This document shows, piece after piece, positions 5,106-19,845 of a stretch of DNA of 64,000 nucleotides (positions within the stretch are counted from its first letter, which is position 1; the number at the start of each line of letters is the position of its first letter). The translations under genes were made by a program, and so were the position numbers. The stretch is from positions 1 through 64,000 of the IMG/VR virus record IMGVR_UViG_3300032093_000068; one strand, 5' to 3'. This DNA comes from a virus. The notes beneath the pieces were generated by a model. It saw only the letters and a program-made list of their open reading frames with translations. It searched no databases and was not told the DNA's origin.

Positions 5106-5858
5106 ATGGAAAGAAAATTAGCAAGTATTAGAATTATATCTGATTTGCGCCCAATTGAGGGTGCTGATAAAATAGAATTGGCCATCGTTGATGGATGGAA
5201 AGTAGTTGTTGCAAAAGATGTAGGTCACAAAGTTGGTGACAAAGTTATTTATTGTGAGATTGACTCATTTTTACCTATTAAACCTGAATTCGAATTTTTG
5301 CGAAAATCATCATATAAAAAGATGGCCGACGGTTCTGAAGGTTTTCGTTTGAGAACCGTAAAACTTCGCGGACAGGTTAGTCAAGGTTTGATTTTACCTT
5401 TATCGTTAATTAATTACACTAACTTAGATTTTAAGGTTGGTATGGATGTAACTATGATGTTGGGGATTAATAAATACGAGCCTCCAATTCCGGCAGAACT
5501 TGCTGGTAAGGTAAAAGGTTTGTTTCCATCGTTTATACCTAAAACCGACGAGGTGAGATGTTTATCTGAAGAAACCGAATTAATAACTGAAGATGGTATT
5601 AAAACAATCAAAGAAATTTGTGAAACTAAATATATTGGTAAAGTTTTGAGTTTTAATGTTTTTGAAAACAAAAACGAAATGAACACCATAAATTCTCACT
5701 CAGTACAAAAAAATAATAATGATTGGTATGAAATTGAATTAATTTCAGGTAAAATTCTTAAACTAACAGGTAACCATAGAATTTGGTTACCAGAACTTAA
5801 TTGTTATAGAGAAGTTAAAGAACTTTTAGGTGATGAAGTTGTAAAAATAACGGATTAA
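5106..5858 (+). CDS. RNA ligase N-terminal half fused to split-intein N-fragment
   Basis: Residues 1-151 form the N-terminal region of a DraRnl-type RNA ligase, with an OB-like start. Residue 152 is a cysteine (codon 5559-5561) opening a typical intein N-terminus: CLSEETELITEDG, followed by the block B motif TGNHRIW and ending at residue 250. The intein then stops at TAA 5858. Its C-terminal partner is at 6870. Known split inteins join the flanking protein parts after translation, so a 336-residue ligase should result, close to the 342 residues of Deinococcus Rnl. The endonuclease gene lies between the two halves. Confidence 0.88.
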   Translation: MERKLASIRIISDLRPIEGADKIELAIVDGWKVVVAKDVGHKVGDKVIYCEIDSFLPIKPEFEFLRKSSYKKMADGSEGFRLRTVKLRGQVSQGLILPLSLINYTNLDFKVGMDVTMMLGINKYEPPIPAELAGKVKGLFPSFIPKTDEVRCLSEETELITEDGIKTIKEICETKYIGKVLSFNVFENKNEMNTINSHSVQKNNNDWYEIELISGKILKLTGNHRIWLPELNCYREVKELLGDEVVKITD

Positions 5859-5882
5859 GTTCTGTTTTTTATATAAAGTTAG

Positions 5883-5890
5883 ATATTTAT
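5883..5890 (+). promoter_or_regulatory. ATATTTAT motif (candidate late promoter)
   Basis: GATATTTATA lies 17 bases before the endonuclease ATG. The same motif precedes many structural genes here, suggesting that the endonuclease is expressed late. Confidence 0.45.
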
Positions 5891-5907
5891 ATGTAAATAA
5901 ATATGTT

Positions 5908-6876
5908 ATGGAATGTCTAATTTGTAAAAAAGAGTTTATAAAAAAAAATCATTTAAAAATACATATTAATCATCATCACCCTAATAATAAGCTTGAAAAT
6001 GAGGTTCTATATTTAAAATCATTAGAAACCAAAATACCTATTAATTTGATCGATATTAAAAATATGTATTTGGATGGGAGTACTATTGATGATATCAAAA
6101 AAAAATATGGTGTTAGTGTTGGTAATTATATTTTATTATTGGGTATTAAACGAACTGCTAGCGAAAGTAAAAAAACTAAACAATATAAAGACAAATTTGA
6201 AAAAACTTTAATTGATCGCTACGGTGTTAAAAATCCTTCTCAATCCGAAGATGTGAAATTAAAAAAGAAAAACACATTTTTTAAAAACTATGGATATGAA
6301 AACAATTTTAATAATGAAACAATAAGAAAATATGCAATTTCAAAAATTAACTACACCGAAGTATTGAAAAAAAGTAAAGAAACTTTAAAGTTAAGATATG
6401 GCGATAATATAATTAATCCAGCTCAACTAGGTTGGGTTAAAGAAAAAATATCAAAATCTCAAAAAGATAGATTATCTAAACTATCAACAGATGAATTAAG
6501 ATCTTTAACTGAAAAGGCCAGAGGTAATTTAAAATATGTTAGTAAACAAGAATTAAGGATACAATCAATTCTAAATGAATTAAATATTACTTATACGGCA
6601 AATGGTTTTTTATATAGTTATAATTGGGATTTAATTTTTAAAAATAAAATCATAATTGAAGTTCAGGGGGACTTCTGGCATGGTAGCCCTAAATTATATA
6701 AAGAATCTGATATTTTACTAAATGGGTTAACCGTTAAGGATGTTTGGGAAAAAGATAAAAAAAAACTTAAATTAATCGAATCAAAAGGCTATAAGGTTTA
6801 TTATCTTTGGGAAAGTGATATTAATCATATGAGTGACTTTGAATTGTTAAATGCATTAAAAGAAATATTATGTTAG
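5908..6876 (+). CDS. free-standing homing endonuclease, zinc finger plus Vsr-like nuclease
   Basis: A 322-residue protein lying exactly between the two split-intein halves. The N-terminus is a C2H2 zinc finger (C3, C6, H19, H23). The middle has two RYG-N-P-Q type repeats (103-112 and 163-172). The C-terminal nuclease has E215, D241 (YNWDLIF), IEVQGDFWHG (E251, D255, H258) and VYYLWESDI (W301, E302), matching the EDxHD/Vsr-like fold of I-Bth0305I-type homing enzymes. It likely cuts intein-less ligase genes and spreads the whole cassette. It overlaps the C-intein gene by 7 bases. Confidence 0.85.
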   Translation: MECLICKKEFIKKNHLKIHINHHHPNNKLENEVLYLKSLETKIPINLIDIKNMYLDGSTIDDIKKKYGVSVGNYILLLGIKRTASESKKTKQYKDKFEKTLIDRYGVKNPSQSEDVKLKKKNTFFKNYGYENNFNNETIRKYAISKINYTEVLKKSKETLKLRYGDNIINPAQLGWVKEKISKSQKDRLSKLSTDELRSLTEKARGNLKYVSKQELRIQSILNELNITYTANGFLYSYNWDLIFKNKIIIEVQGDFWHGSPKLYKESDILLNGLTVKDVWEKDKKKLKLIESKGYKVYYLWESDINHMSDFELLNALKEILC

Positions 6877-7538
6877 ATAAGATTAAAACAATAAAAAAAA
6901 TAAAAAATAAATCTAAGCGTTACGATGTTGGGGTTGAAAATGTAAATAATTTTTACGCTAATGGTGTGCTTGTTCATAATTGTCAGAACTTATCTTCTGA
7001 GTATGAAGAAATGAAAAAACATACCTACTATGTTACAGAAAAACTTGATGGTTCCTCTGCAACATTTTATGTCAAAGATGGTGAGTTTGGTATATGTTCT
7101 CGTAATTTGGAACTTTTAGAAAGTGAAACCAACACATTTTGGAGAGTTGCAAGAATTTTGGATTTAGAAAATAAAATGAAAAGTTTGAATAAAAATATTT
7201 CATTTCAGGGTGAACTTATAGGTGAAGGTATACAAGGAAATCCATATAAAGTTATCGGTCAAACTGTTAAATTTTTTAATATATTTGATATTGATAATTT
7301 CAAATATTACGAATTCGCGGATTTTATTTATGTTATGGCTTTTTTAGGTCTTAGTTACGTACCTGTATTATCTGAGGATTTCAAACTACCTGAAACTATT
7401 GATGAATTAATTAACTTTGCAGATGATAAATCACAATTAAATCAAAATTTTGATAGAGAAGGTATCGTTATTAGGTCTTATGACAAATCAGTTTCATTCA
7501 AAGTCATCTCAAACAAATTTTTACTTTCAGAAAAATGA
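6870..7538 (+). CDS. split-intein C-fragment fused to RNA ligase catalytic half
   Basis: Residues 1-37 are the C-intein, ending YDVGVENVNNFYANGVLVHN with the terminal Asn37; Cys38 is the +1 residue. The ligase part (38-222) has motif I EKLDGSS (nucleophile K58), motif III FNIFDI, motif IV REGIVIR and motif V SFKVISNKF. After splicing the junction reads DEVR-CQNL, just ahead of the active site, so neither half is active alone. The product would seal nicked RNA with ATP. The stop overlaps the next start (ATGA). Confidence 0.88.
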   Translation: MLDKIKTIKKIKNKSKRYDVGVENVNNFYANGVLVHNCQNLSSEYEEMKKHTYYVTEKLDGSSATFYVKDGEFGICSRNLELLESETNTFWRVARILDLENKMKSLNKNISFQGELIGEGIQGNPYKVIGQTVKFFNIFDIDNFKYYEFADFIYVMAFLGLSYVPVLSEDFKLPETIDELINFADDKSQLNQNFDREGIVIRSYDKSVSFKVISNKFLLSEK

Positions 7539-8169: not shown

Positions 8170-9231
8170 ATGTTAGAAACCTTAGAGAAATATTATAACG
8201 AGGGATTACTTTATAAACAAGTACATCCAACTTTACCATTAACTATATGGAACTATAATGAAAAGGTTCAATATGAAAATCTGTGGGACGATATTACTCT
8301 AATGTGCCGTGGTTTGGTAACTGATGACAATGGGAATGTTGTTGCTCGCCCGTTTAAAAAATTTTTTAATCTTAGTGAACAAAAACACTCCGCAACCGAA
8401 AAGTTTGATGTGTATGATAAATTAGACGGCTCACTTGGTATTTTTTTCTATTATAACGGTGGTTGGATTATGGCAACTCGCGGATCATTTACTTCTGATC
8501 AAGCGGTTAAGGGGTATGAAATGATGTTTAAATATGATTTCGCGTCCTTACATAAGGATTATACTTATTTGTTTGAAATCATATACAAACAAAATAGAAT
8601 AGTGTGCCAATATGATTTTGAAGATGTCATTCTACTTGGTATGATAAACACCAAAACCGGTCAAGAAGTTGATTTATACTCAGACAATTATGACGTTAGA
8701 TTTTCTAATATGATAAAAAATTTGGGGTTCAAATTGGCCAAAAAATACGATGGAATCAAGGACTACAAAGAACTTAAATCTATGATAAAAGATAATGAGG
8801 AAGGTTTTGTTGTTAAGTTTTCTAACGGAGATAGAATAAAAATAAAAGGTGATGAATATTTGAGATTACATAAAATAATGACACAAATATCGACCACCTC
8901 AATATGGGAATGTCTTAAAAATGGAGATGATATAGAATCTTTACTTAAAGATGTTCCTGACGAATTTTATAAAAAAATAAAATTATATGTTGGAAATCTA
9001 AAATATCATCATTTTCAAATATCTGAATATTGTGGTAAAATGCACGATTATTTCAGATATGGAAAATATAATGATGTCGATCCTGAACCAACCAAATCTG
9101 AATTTGCAAAGTTCGTTCAAACTAATATTAATAAAAGAGAATTACATTCTGTAATGTTTGCAATGTGGGATAGAAAAGATTATAGTCAAATAATATGGAA
9201 ATTAATTAAACCAAAATATGAAAAACTTTAA
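8170..9231 (+). CDS. rnlA: T4 RNA ligase 1-like enzyme
   Basis: A 353-residue protein, close to the 374 of T4 Rnl1. It shows MCRGLVTD and RPFKKFFNL ahead of motif I YDKLDGSLG (nucleophile K84). EGFVVKF (motif IV) and IKIKGDEYLRLH (motif V) follow. T4 Rnl1 repairs tRNA cut in the anticodon loop by host anticodon nucleases. The nearby tRNA array, cREC protein and phosphoesterase make the same role likely. This is the second RNA ligase in the window and belongs to a different family from the split one. Confidence 0.88.
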   Translation: MLETLEKYYNEGLLYKQVHPTLPLTIWNYNEKVQYENLWDDITLMCRGLVTDDNGNVVARPFKKFFNLSEQKHSATEKFDVYDKLDGSLGIFFYYNGGWIMATRGSFTSDQAVKGYEMMFKYDFASLHKDYTYLFEIIYKQNRIVCQYDFEDVILLGMINTKTGQEVDLYSDNYDVRFSNMIKNLGFKLAKKYDGIKDYKELKSMIKDNEEGFVVKFSNGDRIKIKGDEYLRLHKIMTQISTTSIWECLKNGDDIESLLKDVPDEFYKKIKLYVGNLKYHHFQISEYCGKMHDYFRYGKYNDVDPEPTKSEFAKFVQTNINKRELHSVMFAMWDRKDYSQIIWKLIKPKYEKL

Positions 9232-9511
9232 ATTATTTTTAATATCATTAATAATTGGTCTGAGTATTTGTCAAATCGGCAAATCTCAGGCCATTTTATA
9301 CCAAAAAAAGTTAAAGTCTTCAACTTTTATGATATCGGCTGGAACTATGATGTTAGGAGCTTCCATGTTTGACTATAATTTTTACGGTCCTTATCCAACC
9401 ATATATTATAGACCAAATTTTTTTAGAACTTATCCGAGAAATTTATTTTTCGGAGTAGGTGTAGGACTTGCAGTTTCAGGAGGAGTAATAACCTACAGGT
9501 TTTTACGTTAA
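9218..9511 (+). CDS. small secreted or membrane protein
   Basis: A 97-residue protein starting inside the end of the ligase gene (14-base overlap). The N-terminus has a signal-peptide pattern: MKNFK, then a hydrophobic core, then GKSQA as a possible cleavage site. A Tyr/Phe/Pro-rich centre (YGPYPTIYYRPNFF) and a second hydrophobic stretch (FFGVGVGLAVSGGVITY) follow. It is probably exported to the host envelope. It is convergent with the next gene, overlapping by nine bases. Confidence 0.6.
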   Translation: MKNFKLFLISLIIGLSICQIGKSQAILYQKKLKSSTFMISAGTMMLGASMFDYNFYGPYPTIYYRPNFFRTYPRNLFFGVGVGLAVSGGVITYRFLR

Positions 9512-10324
9512 TTTATCGTTTATTTTGAGTATTGTTTGTCTTTTTCTTTGTAATGTATGCCCATACGCGCCTTTACTTAAAAAATCATCAAAATGAAAAT
9601 CGTAGATATCATTTATAAAACATTTATCCCAAAAGTCTTCATCAATTGAGCCTACCTCCAAATGATTTGAATTATAATCCATATCAAGTGTAATTATTGC
9701 TGGATAATTTGTACTTAAAAAAGGTTGGTCTGAAATGTCTTTACCTTCCGACATATATTCTTCGGCAATAGTTAATAAATTTAAATCATAAGAAATATAG
9801 GAAGTTACAGTAATTTCGGGAACATTTACATCATCATCAATCGTTCCATCGCCTTTACAGGTATCACAATCATCTGAACCATTTCCGCCACATTCATCAC
9901 AAGATTCATGTCCAGAACCATCACAGTATTCACAATCTTCTTCACCTTCATCGCCTTCAATAGTCCCGTCACCACCGCATTGATTACAAGATTCATAACC
10001 TGACCCACCGCAATTACCGCAGTTTTCATATCCATTTCCATTACAGTCAGGACAATTTATCTCAGCAGGATACCTACCAAAACAAATTTTATCAATGACA
10101 TATAAATTATTATTTATAGACCAATCAACTGTTTTTCTATCAAGACCTCTTTTTATTGCGTCCAAATAAAAGGTCAATTTTAAATTTTGTTCTATTGATA
10201 ATTGGCCTGTCAATTGTTTGAAAGTATTATTCAATAATATATAACCATATATTTTATTTAATTTAAGATCATCTGGTAGTAGTCTTACTAATCTTTTAGC
10301 GACATTATATAAATCAATATTCAT
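9503..10324 (-). CDS. DnaJ-type zinc-finger protein without a J domain
   Basis: The ATG at 10324 is preferred: an in-frame ATG at 10348 would overlap the ATAAATAC promoter-like motif. The 273-residue protein has six CxxCxGxG repeats near residues 90-160 (CPDCNGNG, CGNCGGSG, CNQCGGDG, CEYCDGSG, CDECGGNG, CDTCKGDG). DnaJ normally has four, and they bind zinc and unfolded protein. No HPD-containing J domain is seen, so it cannot stimulate DnaK in the usual way. The acidic C-terminal half is unrecognised. It may act as a holdase. Confidence 0.75.
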   Translation of the reverse strand: MNIDLYNVAKRLVRLLPDDLKLNKIYGYILLNNTFKQLTGQLSIEQNLKLTFYLDAIKRGLDRKTVDWSINNNLYVIDKICFGRYPAEINCPDCNGNGYENCGNCGGSGYESCNQCGGDGTIEGDEGEEDCEYCDGSGHESCDECGGNGSDDCDTCKGDGTIDDDVNVPEITVTSYISYDLNLLTIAEEYMSEGKDISDQPFLSTNYPAIITLDMDYNSNHLEVGSIDEDFWDKCFINDIYDFHFDDFLSKGAYGHTLQRKRQTILKINDKLT

Positions 10325-10328
10325 ACAG

Positions 10329-10336
10329 ATAAATAC
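10329..10336 (-). promoter_or_regulatory. GTATTTAT motif (candidate late promoter)
   Basis: On the - strand GTATTTAT lies four bases before the ATG at 10324. It is a one-base variant of the ATATTTAT motif seen upstream of structural genes. Confidence 0.3.
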
Positions 10337-10350
10337 ATTAAAAAACAAAA

Positions 10351-10632: not shown

Positions 10633-10663
10633 TTGATTTGTTTGCTTGAATTCACTAATTTTG
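10633..10663 (+). promoter_or_regulatory. host-type promoter
   Basis: TTG at 10633-10635 and TAATTTTG at 10656-10663 are 20 bases apart. It is the first of three such promoters in 250 bases leading into the structured RNA region. Confidence 0.5.
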
Positions 10664-10720
10664 TCAAACATTAGTTCTTTAAATGAAAAACAATTTCTCC
10701 AATTTTTTTTTAAAAATAAT

Positions 10721-10757: not shown

Positions 10758-10835
10758 ATTTAGATGTCACCCCACCCTATCAGTTTTTAGGTTATTTAAT
10801 TTGAGTTCGATAGGGTGGGGGGAACGAGTGAAAAA
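10758..10835 (+). ncRNA. short hairpin RNA candidate
   Basis: A perfect 12-bp stem (10770-10781 with 10809-10820, CCCCACCCTATC/GATAGGGTGGGG) encloses a 27-base loop. It starts about 12 bases after a well-placed promoter and ends before a second promoter. No protein frame fits. There is no T-run, so it may instead be the 5' part of the longer transcript. Confidence 0.45.
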
Positions 10836-10851
10836 AAAATTTAAAAAAAAC

Positions 10852-10881
10852 TTGACAAGTGAAAAAAATTTCGTAACTTTG
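10852..10881 (+). promoter_or_regulatory. host-type promoter of the giant structured RNA
   Basis: TTG at 10852-10854 and TAACTTTG at 10874-10881 are 19 bases apart. The first RNA stem (AATTCGAAA) begins at about 10887, where the transcript should start. Confidence 0.7.
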
Positions 10882-10885
10882 TCAA

Positions 10886-12204
10886 ACAATTCGAAAAGGA
10901 GGTCTGGTGTGAACCCGACTAAATAGTGTGAGGAAACTCACCATTTACGCGAGTCGGTAGCATGTTTCGAATTATGTTCTTTAAAATAATGGATTATCCA
11001 TCAAGTGAAAGTAGTCCTTCGGGATGATGATAACTTGTAAACGATAATGGGCTGTGTATAGTCCTTAAATAAACCACGAAAGTGGGATAAAGTGAATCCT
11101 CAAGTGTAAGGGGTTTGCGGTTTGAAATAACTTCGGTTGTTTTGAACTCGAGTACACAAACGGGATATCAATAAACCTGTAGTACCGAGGATAACTTCGT
11201 AGGGAAATGGATTATTGATGGGGCGATGTGGGTCGTCCTGTTGAGGTGGGAACACCAATAAGAATAACCCGTAGGGATTTTGTAAAAAATGTTATTATCC
11301 GATAATATTATTACGAGTTCCAATATGAAAGGATACTTAAAACCGAAGGGGCAACCTCAAAGGTATGATAAAGAACGAGTGGTGTCGCTATTATCCTTAA
11401 AGATGACTTACCAAAGTCTCTTTTTGAAGTAATCTTAAAATATGGAGGTGGGGACACTTCAAGGAGTAGTTTGATATTTGGTAATTCAAAAGATTACTAA
11501 GTCGGTGGCGGACCACTACTTCTATAATCCACAACACGTAACTTCGATTTAAAATTCAACTTTTAAAAAAGAGCAAAAGTGTCCGTCAGGTATTAGTGAA
11601 AGGTGACTACATAGTAATGAGCCGTTCATTGCCTCTGATAACCGCAAGTTTGATGAGATTTTTATGAAATACCTCTAATCTCGCAAGGATTAACTGGGGA
11701 GGCATTCTCGGGGAGAGTTGAGTAATAAAAGAGTAACTAGTACCTCAAGGAGTGGTTAGTCTAACTAACCGTCACTGGAAATTACCATTCAAAAGATGGT
11801 GGATACATAGGGAACCCATAATCCTATAAAAGATTTCCAATAAAACGTGTAATCTCAGCGTAAGCCATATTGCGGGCGGGCAGGTCGGATCTGCGGGTGT
11901 CTCATAAGCACTCCATAAATTTGGTTCAACTCCAGAGCGACGCAACTAGTGACCCTTTTACGGTGGAATCGGATGAAGCCACCTAATTTTTAGGGAGAAA
12001 AAAAAACAAAAAAAATAATGTGTCCGGGGGTGTTTTGTTTAAGTTCTAGGTTCTTGTTATTAGTTTCATACCCCTGACCAATGTAAACCAAAAAAATAGA
12101 CCACCTTTTGTTAGTGTGTGCAGATGTGATAACCACACTTTTCGTTTGGGGTTCAGCAAAACGAAAAAAAGAAAGGTTAGCTACCTTTTTAACACATCCG
12201 TCGA
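10886..12204 (+). ncRNA. giant structured RNA, GOLLD/ROOL-class candidate
   Basis: There is no convincing protein frame for 1.4 kb, but base-pairing is dense. The 5' domain is closed by ATTCGAAA/TTTCGAAT (10888-10964) around CCGACT/AGTCGG and GTGAG-GAAA-CTCAC. Many other hairpins end in GNRA or UUCG tetraloops (CCAC-GAAA-GTGG, AAC-TTCG-GTT, GTG-GGAA-CAC, GTG-GGGA-CAC). An A-rich linker near 11997-12017 separates a 3' domain closed by ATGTGT/ACACAT. A complete tRNA-like fold sits at 11870-11945. GOLLD and ROOL are known very large phage RNAs found near tRNAs. Size, position and fold density fit that class, but the exact family was not confirmed. Confidence 0.7.
11870..11945 (+). other. tRNA-like domain with CAU loop inside the giant RNA
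   Basis: The 76-nt segment has TTGCG/CGCAA closing pairs and a D-like arm GCAG-GTCGGAT-CTGC. Next come an anticodon-like arm GGGTGT-CTCATAA-GCACTC (CAU) and a T-arm TTTGG-TTCAACT-CCAGA. Only the outer five acceptor pairs form, and no CCA follows. It is therefore a tRNA mimic or decayed tRNA rather than a normal gene. Its loop CTCATAA equals that of tRNA-Met at 1250. Confidence 0.6.
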
Positions 12205-12289
12205 GTGGTCGAACGTCTCGAGTTAATTACTCACTATAATTAAACTTGGGTTTATTGGAAACCCAACCACAAAACCAATAGCCAAATAA

Positions 12290-12319
12290 GGGTTGTCACT
12301 TCGGTGATGACCCTTTTTT
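12290..12319 (+). terminator. strong intrinsic terminator
   Basis: GGGTTGTCAC-TTCG-GTGATGACCC forms a 10-bp stem capped by a UUCG loop and followed by six Ts. It ends the structured RNA transcription unit. Confidence 0.85.
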
Positions 12320-12328
12320 ATTTTCAGT

Positions 12329-12680: not shown

Positions 12681-13051
12681 TGGTGGAGATGCGGGGTGCC
12701 GCCCCCCGGTCTTGTTCACTTTGATAATTAAGGACTACGTAAATAGTACAACATTATTTCTTAATGTTCCGAAATATTAGCTTTCTAACTCAGAAAACCA
12801 CAAACGAGTTTTGTTTCTTTTAGGATAGAAACCACACCCTACAAGTACTTCTGTTCCAAGGTTAAATGTACGCCGACCCGTTGTAGGTTTGCCTTAGGCT
12901 ACTGCTACTTTTTCAGAAGTACGAACAAGTCCTACAGCTGAAAGTTTGTTGATAACGTTTCCGTCTAATTGATAAGTCAGTTTTACAAGGTTAACTCAGC
13001 CTCGTTACGCCCCTAATTAGCAACCGTGCCAATCAATGCTATGTCATCCCC
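12681..13051 (-). ncRNA. ssrA: phage transfer-messenger RNA (tmRNA), divergent
   Basis: The 371-nt RNA starts GGGGATG and ends CATCTCC-A-CCA. The seven acceptor pairs include G3-U70, the alanine identity pair. A pseudoknot-like element (CGAGG/CCTTG with AGTT/AACT) precedes AATTAGAC, then a GGA resume codon at 12962. The tag frame to TAA at 12894 encodes 22 residues beginning GNVINKLSAV and ending TSEKVAVA. A glycine resume codon is usual in Bacteroidota. Two things are odd: the T-loop is GGCGGCA instead of TTCRANN, and the tag is long and ends AVA instead of LAA. The tmRNA rescues stalled ribosomes and tags their products for proteolysis. Confidence 0.8.
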
Positions 13052-13079
13052 AATATTTTAAAGAACTTGTTTTCTTTTA

Positions 13080-17796: not shown

Positions 17797-17824
17797 AAAG
17801 GAGGGTTATTCACCCTCCTTTTTT
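17797..17824. terminator. bidirectional terminator between peptidase and clpC-like genes
   Basis: GGAGGG-TTATTCA-CCCTCC is followed by six Ts on the + strand and by a T-rich tract on the - strand. The stop codon of the clpC-like gene lies in the hairpin loop. The 160 bases before it hold only a doubtful 19-codon frame (17731-17790). Confidence 0.75.
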
Positions 17825-19845
17825 GATTTACCCCTTTTTGGTTTTTTTTCTTCAATGATTATTATTTCATCATCTTCAGATTTAACAAGATATTGGATAT
17901 CTGTTAAAATATTTCCTTTTAAAACCTCTTCTGAAATATAATCCTCAATTTTATCTTGTATTGCTCTTTTTAGAGGCCGAGCACCATACATTTCATCAAA
18001 ACCAATTTTTGATATCATATCAATAATTGTATCATCAAATGATAGGTTGTATTTTATCTTGGATAATCTACTTTTTAATTTTTCTATTTCAATTTTGACA
18101 ATTTCTTTGACGTGTTCTTCTTTTAACGTGTTAAATACGATAATATCATCAATACGGTTTAAAAATTCAGGTGCAAAGAATTTCTGTAATTCTTTTTTTA
18201 GCGTGTCCCTTTTTTGTTCTTCAACAATATAATCCTTTTTTTGAAAACCTATACCTGTTCCAAAATCTTGTATTTTTTTAACACCAAGATTGGATGTCAT
18301 AATTATCAAACAATTTTTGAAATTAATTTTTCTACCCAATCCGTCTGTAAGATGTCCATCGTCTAAAACTTGTAGTAAAGTTGAGAACACGTCTTTATTT
18401 GCTTTCTCAATTTCATCAAATAAAATTACGGAGTATGGTTTATTTTTAACTTGCTCAGTTAATTGACCACCTTCATCATATCCAACATAACCTGGAGGTG
18501 ACCCTATTAATCTTGATATTGAATGCTTTTCTTGAAATTCTGACATATCAACTCTAATCAATGAATCTTCGCTTCCGAAAATTTCTCGTGCCAATTGTTT
18601 TGCTAAATGTGTTTTTCCTACTCCAGTACTTCCTAAGAAGATAAAAGAACCAATTGGTCTATTTGGATCTTTAATTCCCAATCTATTTCTTCTAATAGCT
18701 TTTGAGATTTTGCTCACCGCTTCAGTTTGACCAATAACTTTACTTTCAATCATTGATTCCAAATTAATAAGTGATTTGGTGTCATCAATGTTTAATTTTC
18801 CAACAGGAATTTTTGTCATATTGGAAACCACTTCATAAACTAATTCTATTTGAACATTTTTTTTGTTTATGTTCATTTCCTCTTCAAACTTTTGTTTCTC
18901 AATAGTTAGTCTATTTAAAACCTTTTTTTCTTTGTCTCTCAATTCTGCGGCTTGTTCGTAATTTTGTCTTTTGACAACATCTATTTTTAATTGTTTGATA
19001 TCTGCAGCCTCTTGTTTTAATTTTTCTATAGATTCTGGCATTTTGACATCAACTTGACTTCTTGCTCCAACTTCGTCAATAATATCAAAAGCTTTATCAG
19101 GAAATTCTCTATCTGTAATATATCTATCTGCCAAATCAACACAAGTGGTTAAAACTTCATCAGAGAAAATTACTTTGTGATAATCCTCATATTTTGATTT
19201 TGAATTTCGTAGAATTTGTAATGTTTCTTCTTTTGTTGATGGGTCAACCACAACTTTTTGAAATCTTCTTTCTAATGCACCATCTTTTTCAAAGTTTTTT
19301 CTATATTCATCTAATGTGGTGGCTCCGATGCACTGTATTTCACCTCTTGCCAATGCCGGTTTAAATATGTTTGATGCGTCCATAGATCCTGAAGAATTTC
19401 CAGCGCCTACTATGGTATGAATTTCATCAATGAAAACAATTATATTCGGATGAGATTGCAATTCTTCAATAATGACTTTCATTCTTTCCTCAAATTGACC
19501 TCGATATTTTGTTCCAGCAACTATTGATGTCATATCAAGTAAAACTATTCGTTTATCCAAAAGATTTCTCGGACATTCCCCCTGTTGAATTTTCATGGCT
19601 AAACCCTCTACAATTGCAGTTTTTCCGCATCCAGGCTCACCAATTATAATAGGATTGTTTTTCTTCCTACGAGAAAGAATTTGCGCAATTCTCAAAATTT
19701 CTTTATCTCTTCCAATTACAGGATCTAATTTACCTTCTTCTGCATATTTTATAAGGTCTTTTGAAAAGTTATCTAGTACAGGAGTACCGTGATCGCTTTC
19801 AGATTTTTTTCTTTGTGACGGTCCGTCATCCATTGTCTCGCTCAT
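17806..19845 (-). CDS. ClpC/ClpA-like AAA+ unfoldase lacking the N-domain
   Basis: A 679-residue double-AAA+ protein. The first ATPase has Walker A GEPGCGKT (69-76) and Walker B VFIDE (137-141). A short UVR-like middle region (about 270-330) follows. The second ATPase has GSTGVGKT (405-412) and ILFDE (474-478). The tripeptide IGF at 532-534 is the known ClpP-docking loop, so it can feed host ClpP. The usual N-terminal adaptor domain (about 140 residues) is missing, which should change substrate choice. It lies divergent from hsp20 and near the phage tmRNA. The stop is inside a terminator. Confidence 0.88.

What the first reader, a model, noticed from the sequence alone, without database searches (positions are those of the whole stretch)
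10852..12319. Giant structured phage RNA of about 1.3-1.4 kb with its own promoter and terminator
No credible protein gene lies in this stretch. A TTG-N19-TAACTTTG promoter leads into many short stems capped by GNRA or UUCG tetraloops. A 5' domain is closed by ATTCGAAA/TTTCGAAT, a 3' domain by ATGTGT/ACACAT, and a UUCG terminator follows at 12290. Known phage RNAs of this kind are GOLLD and ROOL, which lie near tRNA genes and in recent structural work form multimeric RNA cages. Host-lineage and length would make this a notable member or a new class.
Basis: partly seen in the sequence, partly recalled or inferred. Interest (0 to 1): 0.9.

Follow-up and report, generated by a model that had tools for sequence, protein, structure and literature searches.

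The report
Phage GOLLD RNA with rRNA-like leader
The stretch encodes GOLLD, a known giant phage RNA that builds hollow cages; in this family of Bacteroidota phages its leader carries the signal bacteria use to transcribe ribosomal RNA without interruption, and here it is followed by a tRNA-like fold and an extra RNA domain.

Summary
It belongs to a known family: 11462-11861 matches the whole Rfam GOLLD model (330.5 bits, E 5.9e-94). The GOLLD body is 11038-11861 (about 825 nt), not 1.4 kb. A 53-sequence alignment supports it: 144 of 197 pairs show compensatory changes and 97.5% of cells pair. A non-nested 7-bp helix is paired in 100% of cells and fits an intermolecular contact of the published GOLLD cage.

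New here: (1) a boxA-like motif, GTTCTTT[G/A]A, lies in the leader of 65 of 67 relatives (0.5 expected) and also marks Bacteroidota 16S rRNA leaders. With tandem promoters, this suggests rRNA-style antiterminated transcription. Mycobacterium, Streptococcus, Acinetobacter and Ruegeria phage GOLLDs lack it. (2) A tmRNA with a conserved unusual tag lies convergently downstream in 31 of 67 loci; 18 of 29 assessable ones have the exact motif. (3) Here GOLLD runs into a degenerate tRNA-Met-like cloverleaf, then a trailer domain ending at a terminator (12288-12319). A trailer family follows GOLLD in other lineages; whether this trailer belongs to it is undecided.

Transcription as one RNA, antitermination, cage formation and function are inferred.

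The parts
10633..10663 (+). Bacteroidota-type promoter P1 (TTG...TAATTTTG)
   Evidence: pattern scan; followed by a second boxA-like motif at 10674
10674..10682 (+). boxA-like motif GTTCTTTAA after P1
10721..10751 (+). promoter P2 (TTG...TATCTTTG)
   Evidence: same type as promoters upstream of relatives
10767..10822 (+). strong hairpin between P2 and P3, function unknown
   Evidence: RNA fold of 10765-10826, -28.1 kcal/mol, z -5.27
10852..10881 (+). promoter P3 (TTG-N19-TAACTTTG)
   Evidence: sequence; block 10831-10898 conserved upstream of GOLLD in many relatives
10887..10973 (+). leader stem domain closed by ATTCGAAA/TTTCGAAT, lineage-specific
   Evidence: MFE fold, z -1.7
10976..10984 (+). 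boxA-like antitermination motif GTTCTTTAA
   Evidence: 65 of 67 relatives, 0.53 expected; same motif in Bacteroidota 16S leaders
11038..11461 (+). GOLLD 5' (cap) domain
   Evidence: homology and covariation in 53 relatives
11462..11861 (+). GOLLD conserved 3' domain (Rfam RF02032)
   Evidence: 330.5 bits, E 5.9e-94
11507..11513 (+). internal-loop strand of a non-nested helix (GGCGGAC)
   Evidence: pairs with 11581-11587, 100% of cells paired, 6 of 7 pairs with compensatory changes
11581..11587 (+). partner strand of the non-nested helix (GUCCGUC)
11870..11946 (+). degenerate tRNA-Met-like cloverleaf, CUCAUAA loop at 11901-11907, altered acceptor stem UUGCG/CGCAA
   Evidence: MFE and centroid agree but the energy is not exceptional (z -0.3); aligns to the tRNA-Met of L155 at the same place (z 5.1); not called by ARAGORN or Rfam
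11962..12287 (+). 3' trailer domain, with helix 12099-12104/12205-12210; the predicted 12252-12258/12275-12281 pairing overlaps the hairpin 12245-12266, so they are alternatives or a pseudoknot
   Evidence: two-genome comparison: 79 pairs, 5 double and 5 single compatible changes, none broken
12288..12319 (+). intrinsic terminator with UUCG loop
12681..13051 (-). convergent phage tmRNA
   Evidence: Rfam RF00023 73.5 bits; convergent in 31 of 67 loci
13058..13066 (-). boxA-like motif GTTCTTTAA just upstream of the tmRNA

Best explanation
The stretch is a GOLLD RNA transcription unit of a T4-like Bacteroidota phage. Tandem host-type promoters start an untranslated transcript whose leader carries a boxA-like signal, so host RNA polymerase would be modified by the rRNA antitermination factors (NusB-S10 and partners) and make the long structured RNA at high level without Rho termination. 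The transcript folds into the GOLLD cap domain and ring domain and assembles with copies of itself into a hollow cage, as shown experimentally for another GOLLD. Here it reads on through a tRNA-Met-derived cloverleaf and a trailer domain to the terminator at 12288. The most likely role is to bind or hold parts of the translation machinery late in infection, alongside the phage's tRNAs and its convergent tmRNA. Shown: family membership, structure, covariation, motif conservation, synteny. Inferred: antitermination, a single 1.4-kb transcript, cage formation by this RNA, function.
For: Rfam GOLLD 330.5 bits over the full model. 53-genome alignment: 144 of 197 pairs with double-sided changes, 97.5% of cells paired against 83.5% shuffled and at most 43.4% slid. 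Non-nested helix 11507-11513/11581-11587 paired in 100% of cells; its place fits the L20-J13/15 kissing contact that bridges chains in the GOLLD env-38 14-mer (PMC12286853). boxA-like motif in 65 of 67 leaders at variable distance from the body, 0.53 expected; TTCTTTGA is the commonest 8-mer in 116 Bacteroidota 16S leaders and GTTC[AT]TTGA is in 58 of them against 0.3 in shuffles. Three promoters in tandem. tRNA-Met a few to about 17 nt after the GOLLD end in relatives. tmRNA convergent in 31 of 31 cases found, 18 of 29 assessable ones with the exact motif. A published GOLLD rises during lysis, and GOLLD binds ribosomes in pull-downs (as cited in PMC12286853).
Against: No RNA-seq for this phage. 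GOLLDs of Mycobacterium, Streptococcus, Acinetobacter and Ruegeria phages show no such motif, so antitermination is not a general GOLLD feature. About half of the sampled 16S leaders lack the exact motif. A GOLLD of a Lactobacillus prophage was dispensable for phage production (PMC7567579), so a strong role is not guaranteed. The non-nested helix was not mapped residue by residue onto the env-38 structure.
Confidence: 0.72

Rival explanations
1. GOLLD alone (about 0.95 kb with leader) is the functional RNA; the tRNA-like piece and trailer are a decayed tRNA plus unrelated downstream sequence, cut off or degraded.
For: Most relatives end with a terminator within 160 nt of GOLLD; the tRNA-like acceptor stem is broken, its fold energy is ordinary (z -0.3) and it is not called by Rfam or ARAGORN.
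Against: No terminator lies between GOLLD and 12288 here. Trailer changes between the two genomes keep pairing, 10 compatible and 0 broken. All 10 matches of a trailer motif in the whole viral collection lie in GOLLD loci.
Confidence: 0.35
2. The GTTCTTTGAA motif is part of GOLLD structure or a phage-specific protein site and not an antitermination boxA.
For: Only sequence evidence exists; the motif is absent from GOLLDs of other host groups.
Against: Its distance to the body varies from -9 to -111, which does not suit a fixed helix; it also precedes the phage tmRNA and host 16S genes.
Confidence: 0.25
3. A separate RNA class related to ROOL or OLE, or an entirely new class.
For: Length and ornate folding.
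Against: Full-length GOLLD match and no ROOL or OLE match.
Confidence: 0.01
4. Decayed gene array, not a functional RNA.
For: None found.
Against: 1459 double-sided compensatory cells and conservation in more than 100 loci.
Confidence: 0.005

Closest known systems
GOLLD RNA, Rfam RF02032; cryo-EM of GOLLD env-38 (PMC12286853)
   Same: Full Rfam 3' domain, a 5' domain, body of about 825 nt against 833 nt, phage-borne, near tRNAs, covarying long-range helix at the place expected for the L20-J13/15 contact
   Different: boxA-like leader with tandem promoters, tRNA-derived cloverleaf after the 3' domain, extra trailer domain, unit of about 1.43 kb
Bacterial rRNA operon leader with boxA (PMC10250234)
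   Same: Host-type promoters in tandem, leader stem, boxA-like motif, long untranslated structured RNA followed by tRNA
   Different: Product is GOLLD, not rRNA; factor binding untested
ROOL RNA
   Same: Giant phage RNA near tRNA genes that forms a cage
   Different: No ROOL model match
Phage ICP1 abundant non-coding RNA of about 800 nt (PMC7567579)
   Same: Large orf-less phage RNA made at very high level
   Different: No tRNAs in ICP1; relation not tested here

Membership tests
GOLLD | Rfam covariance model match above gathering score | tested here: met
   330.5 bits against 150, positions 1-416 of 416
GOLLD | Less conserved 5' domain upstream of the universal 3' domain | tested here: met
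   11038-11461 aligns and covaries in 53 relatives
GOLLD | Long-range L20-J13/15 pairing | tested here: met
   7-bp non-nested helix, 100% of cells paired; its equation with L20-J13/15 is by position and was not mapped residue by residue
GOLLD | Phage or prophage location near tRNA genes | tested here: met
   T4-like phage with 14 tRNAs at 87-2110
GOLLD | Homo-oligomeric cage | not testable with these tools
   needs cryo-EM or mass photometry
GOLLD | Expression rising during lysis | not testable with these tools
   no RNA-seq for this phage
ROOL | Rfam ROOL model match | tested here: not met
OLE | Rfam OLE model match | tested here: not met
rRNA-type boxA antitermination site | boxA-like sequence in the leader, shared with host rRNA leaders | tested here: met
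   65 of 67 GOLLD leaders; commonest 8-mer in 16S leaders
rRNA-type boxA antitermination site | NusB-S10 binding and read-through | not testable with these tools
   needs biochemistry
tRNA (11870-11946) | Recognised tRNA with full acceptor stem | tested here: not met
   no ARAGORN or Rfam call; acceptor replaced by UUGCG/CGCAA with internal loop
Trailer RNA family of relatives (L136, L080, L070, L062) | Covariance model of the conserved core | tested here: inconclusive
   18.6 bits, E 0.0017 in 479 nt but 0.61 in 171 kb

The most novel reading that the evidence does not exclude
Bacteroidota phages express a GOLLD cage RNA as a pseudo-ribosomal operon: boxA-driven antitermination, cage RNA, tRNA or tRNA-like fold, and a dedicated trailer RNA domain in one transcript. 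It is paired with a convergent boxA-led tmRNA with its own degradation tag, the two serving phage control of translation.
Probability: 0.3. Interest if true: 0.85.

Novelty: new variant of a known kind. Interest (0 to 1): 0.6.

Why it matters
GOLLD and ROOL form RNA-only cages of unknown function. A boxA-like signal kept in 65 of 67 leaders gives a concrete, testable account of how one host group's phages make so much untranslated RNA. The recurrent neighbours (tRNA-Met directly behind, tmRNA opposite) point to translation as the place to look for function. The trailer family, found so far only behind GOLLD, gives new parts to add to cage reconstitution.

Tried and rejected
A 14-base GOLLD pattern gave many chance hits in viral contigs and was replaced by a 20-base spaced pattern. 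Searching with the 103-aa downstream protein found only the already known near-identical phage. A pattern from this phage's trailer found only L134. The trailer covariance model gave only marginal support for the window. boxA was not found in GOLLD leaders of other host groups. The 23S leader test had too few loci, 3. Residue-by-residue mapping to the env-38 cage contacts was not done because its sequence was not at hand. No paper in the held library links GOLLD with antitermination, but most subscription papers are missing there.

Full report
Observation. The stretch has no credible gene: the longest stop-to-stop frame in 10887-12320 is 78 codons, on the minus strand. The promoter at 10852-10881 and the terminator at 12288-12319 are real sequence features. 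Two further promoters of the same Bacteroidota type lie at 10633 and 10721.

Identity. Rfam's GOLLD model matches 11462-11861 over all 416 positions with 330.5 bits, E 5.9e-94; ROOL and OLE do not match. A spaced 20-base pattern found 71 viral loci, a second pattern 68, and a profile search of all fetched loci gave 124 full-length bodies, 67 of them non-redundant at 95%. Homology begins at about 11030-11048 and ends at 11861, so the GOLLD body is about 825 nt, close to the 833 nt of the env-38 GOLLD solved by cryo-EM as a closed 14-mer (PMC12286853).

Structure. On 53 bodies, RNAalifold predicts 199 pairs, 145 of them with at least one double-sided change. Counting 197 of them: 97.5% of cells paired (83.5% after shuffling, at most 43.4% when slid), 144 pairs with compensatory change, covariation score 0.460 against 0.188. 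These numbers lean towards the structure because it was derived from the same alignment, but the gap to the controls is very large. A scan of column pairs pointed to a helix outside the nested structure: 11507-11513 with 11581-11587, 100% of cells paired, 6 of 7 pairs with changes on both sides. Its place in an internal loop fits the L20-J13/15 kissing contact, intermolecular in the env-38 cage; that equation is by position only.

Leader. 65 of 67 non-redundant loci carry GTTCTTT[GA]A within 150 nt upstream of the body, where 0.53 would be expected from its frequency elsewhere in the same contigs. The distance to the body varies from -9 to -111. TTCTTTGA is the commonest 8-mer in 116 leaders of Bacteroidota 16S genes; GTTCTTTGA is in 42 (0.15-0.4 in shuffles), mostly 80-200 nt before the gene, and GTTC[AT]TTGA in 58. 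It resembles E. coli boxA (GCUCUUUAACA, from general knowledge), the site through which NusB-S10 joins the rRNA antitermination complex (PMC10250234). The window copy is at 10976-10984. The motif is absent from GOLLD loci of Mycobacterium phage Send513, Streptococcus phage Javan636, Acinetobacter phage AM24 and phage DSS3_MAL1, so this is a feature of the Bacteroidota-phage clade, not of GOLLD as a whole.

3' side. In many relatives a tRNA-Met(CAT) begins within about 17 nt of the GOLLD end. At the same place the window has a cloverleaf with a CUCAUAA loop and T-arm but an altered acceptor stem; it aligns to the tRNA-Met of L155 with z 5.1, yet neither ARAGORN nor Rfam calls it and its folding energy is ordinary. 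In 48 of 66 relatives a terminator follows within 160 nt; here the first is at +429. The region between is a trailer that differs by about 12% from L134, while the GOLLD part is almost identical. On these two genomes 79 pairs are predicted, with 5 double and 5 single compatible changes and none broken. Trailers of the L136 group, L080, L070, L062 and L128 are related to one another, and all ten loci in the viral collection that match a trailer motif are GOLLD loci. A covariance model of that core scores the window at the expected place, 18.6 bits, E 0.0017 in 479 nt but 0.61 in 171 kb: inconclusive.

tmRNA. A tmRNA lies downstream in 31 of 67 loci, always on the opposite strand, 0.1-3 kb away; 18 of the 29 with a complete 5' end have the exact boxA-like motif upstream, and most of the rest show a GTTATTTGA-type variant at the same place. 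The tag reads about GNVLNKMETLGL[LV]RGSEVTVA with small changes. Phage tmRNAs as such are known (PMC4131195, PMC9004378).

Phage. Portal, terminase and head protein families are those of T4-like phages; Flavobacterium phage immuto is the best named match for terminase and among the best two for head protein.

Mechanism. Shown: membership in GOLLD, secondary structure, motif conservation, synteny. Inferred: antiterminated transcription, one 1.4-kb transcript, cage formation by this RNA, and a role in handling translation components. The last step rests on published ribosome binding of GOLLD, on tRNAs linked to GOLLD (both cited in PMC12286853) and on the tRNA and tmRNA neighbours here.

Noticed in passing
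window 12681-13051 (-), and L136, L151, L147 and others: Phage tmRNAs share a long conserved tag (about GNVLNKMETLGLVRGSEVTVA) that does not end in the usual LAA.
   Followed up: partly
window 17806-19845 (-): Phage-encoded ClpA/C-type AAA+ unfoldase (PHROG ATP-dependent protease, E 1e-241), a possible partner for the unusual tmRNA tag.
   Followed up: no
window 5106-7538 (+): RNA ligase gene that looks split by an intein (N-terminal splicing half at 5106-5858, C-terminal half at 6870-7538) with a 322-aa ORF, possibly a homing endonuclease, between; a second RNA ligase at 8170-9231.
   Followed up: no
window 10765-10826: Very stable hairpin (z -5.3) between promoters P2 and P3, not followed by a T run.
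   Followed up: no
L062, after the GOLLD end: The tRNA-Met behind GOLLD appears interrupted by a long insert with an ORF, followed by the rest of the tRNA and the trailer domain.
   Followed up: partly
L331 (phage DSS3_MAL1): GOLLD directly followed, same strand, by an alphaproteobacterial-type permuted tmRNA: an independent GOLLD-tmRNA neighbourhood in another host phylum.
   Followed up: partly
window near 12000 against L134: Sequence divergence jumps from about 0.3% to about 12% at 12000, suggesting recombination at the trailer.
   Followed up: no
window 9503-10348 (-): 281-aa protein with many CxxC repeats, no Pfam or PHROG match.
   Followed up: no
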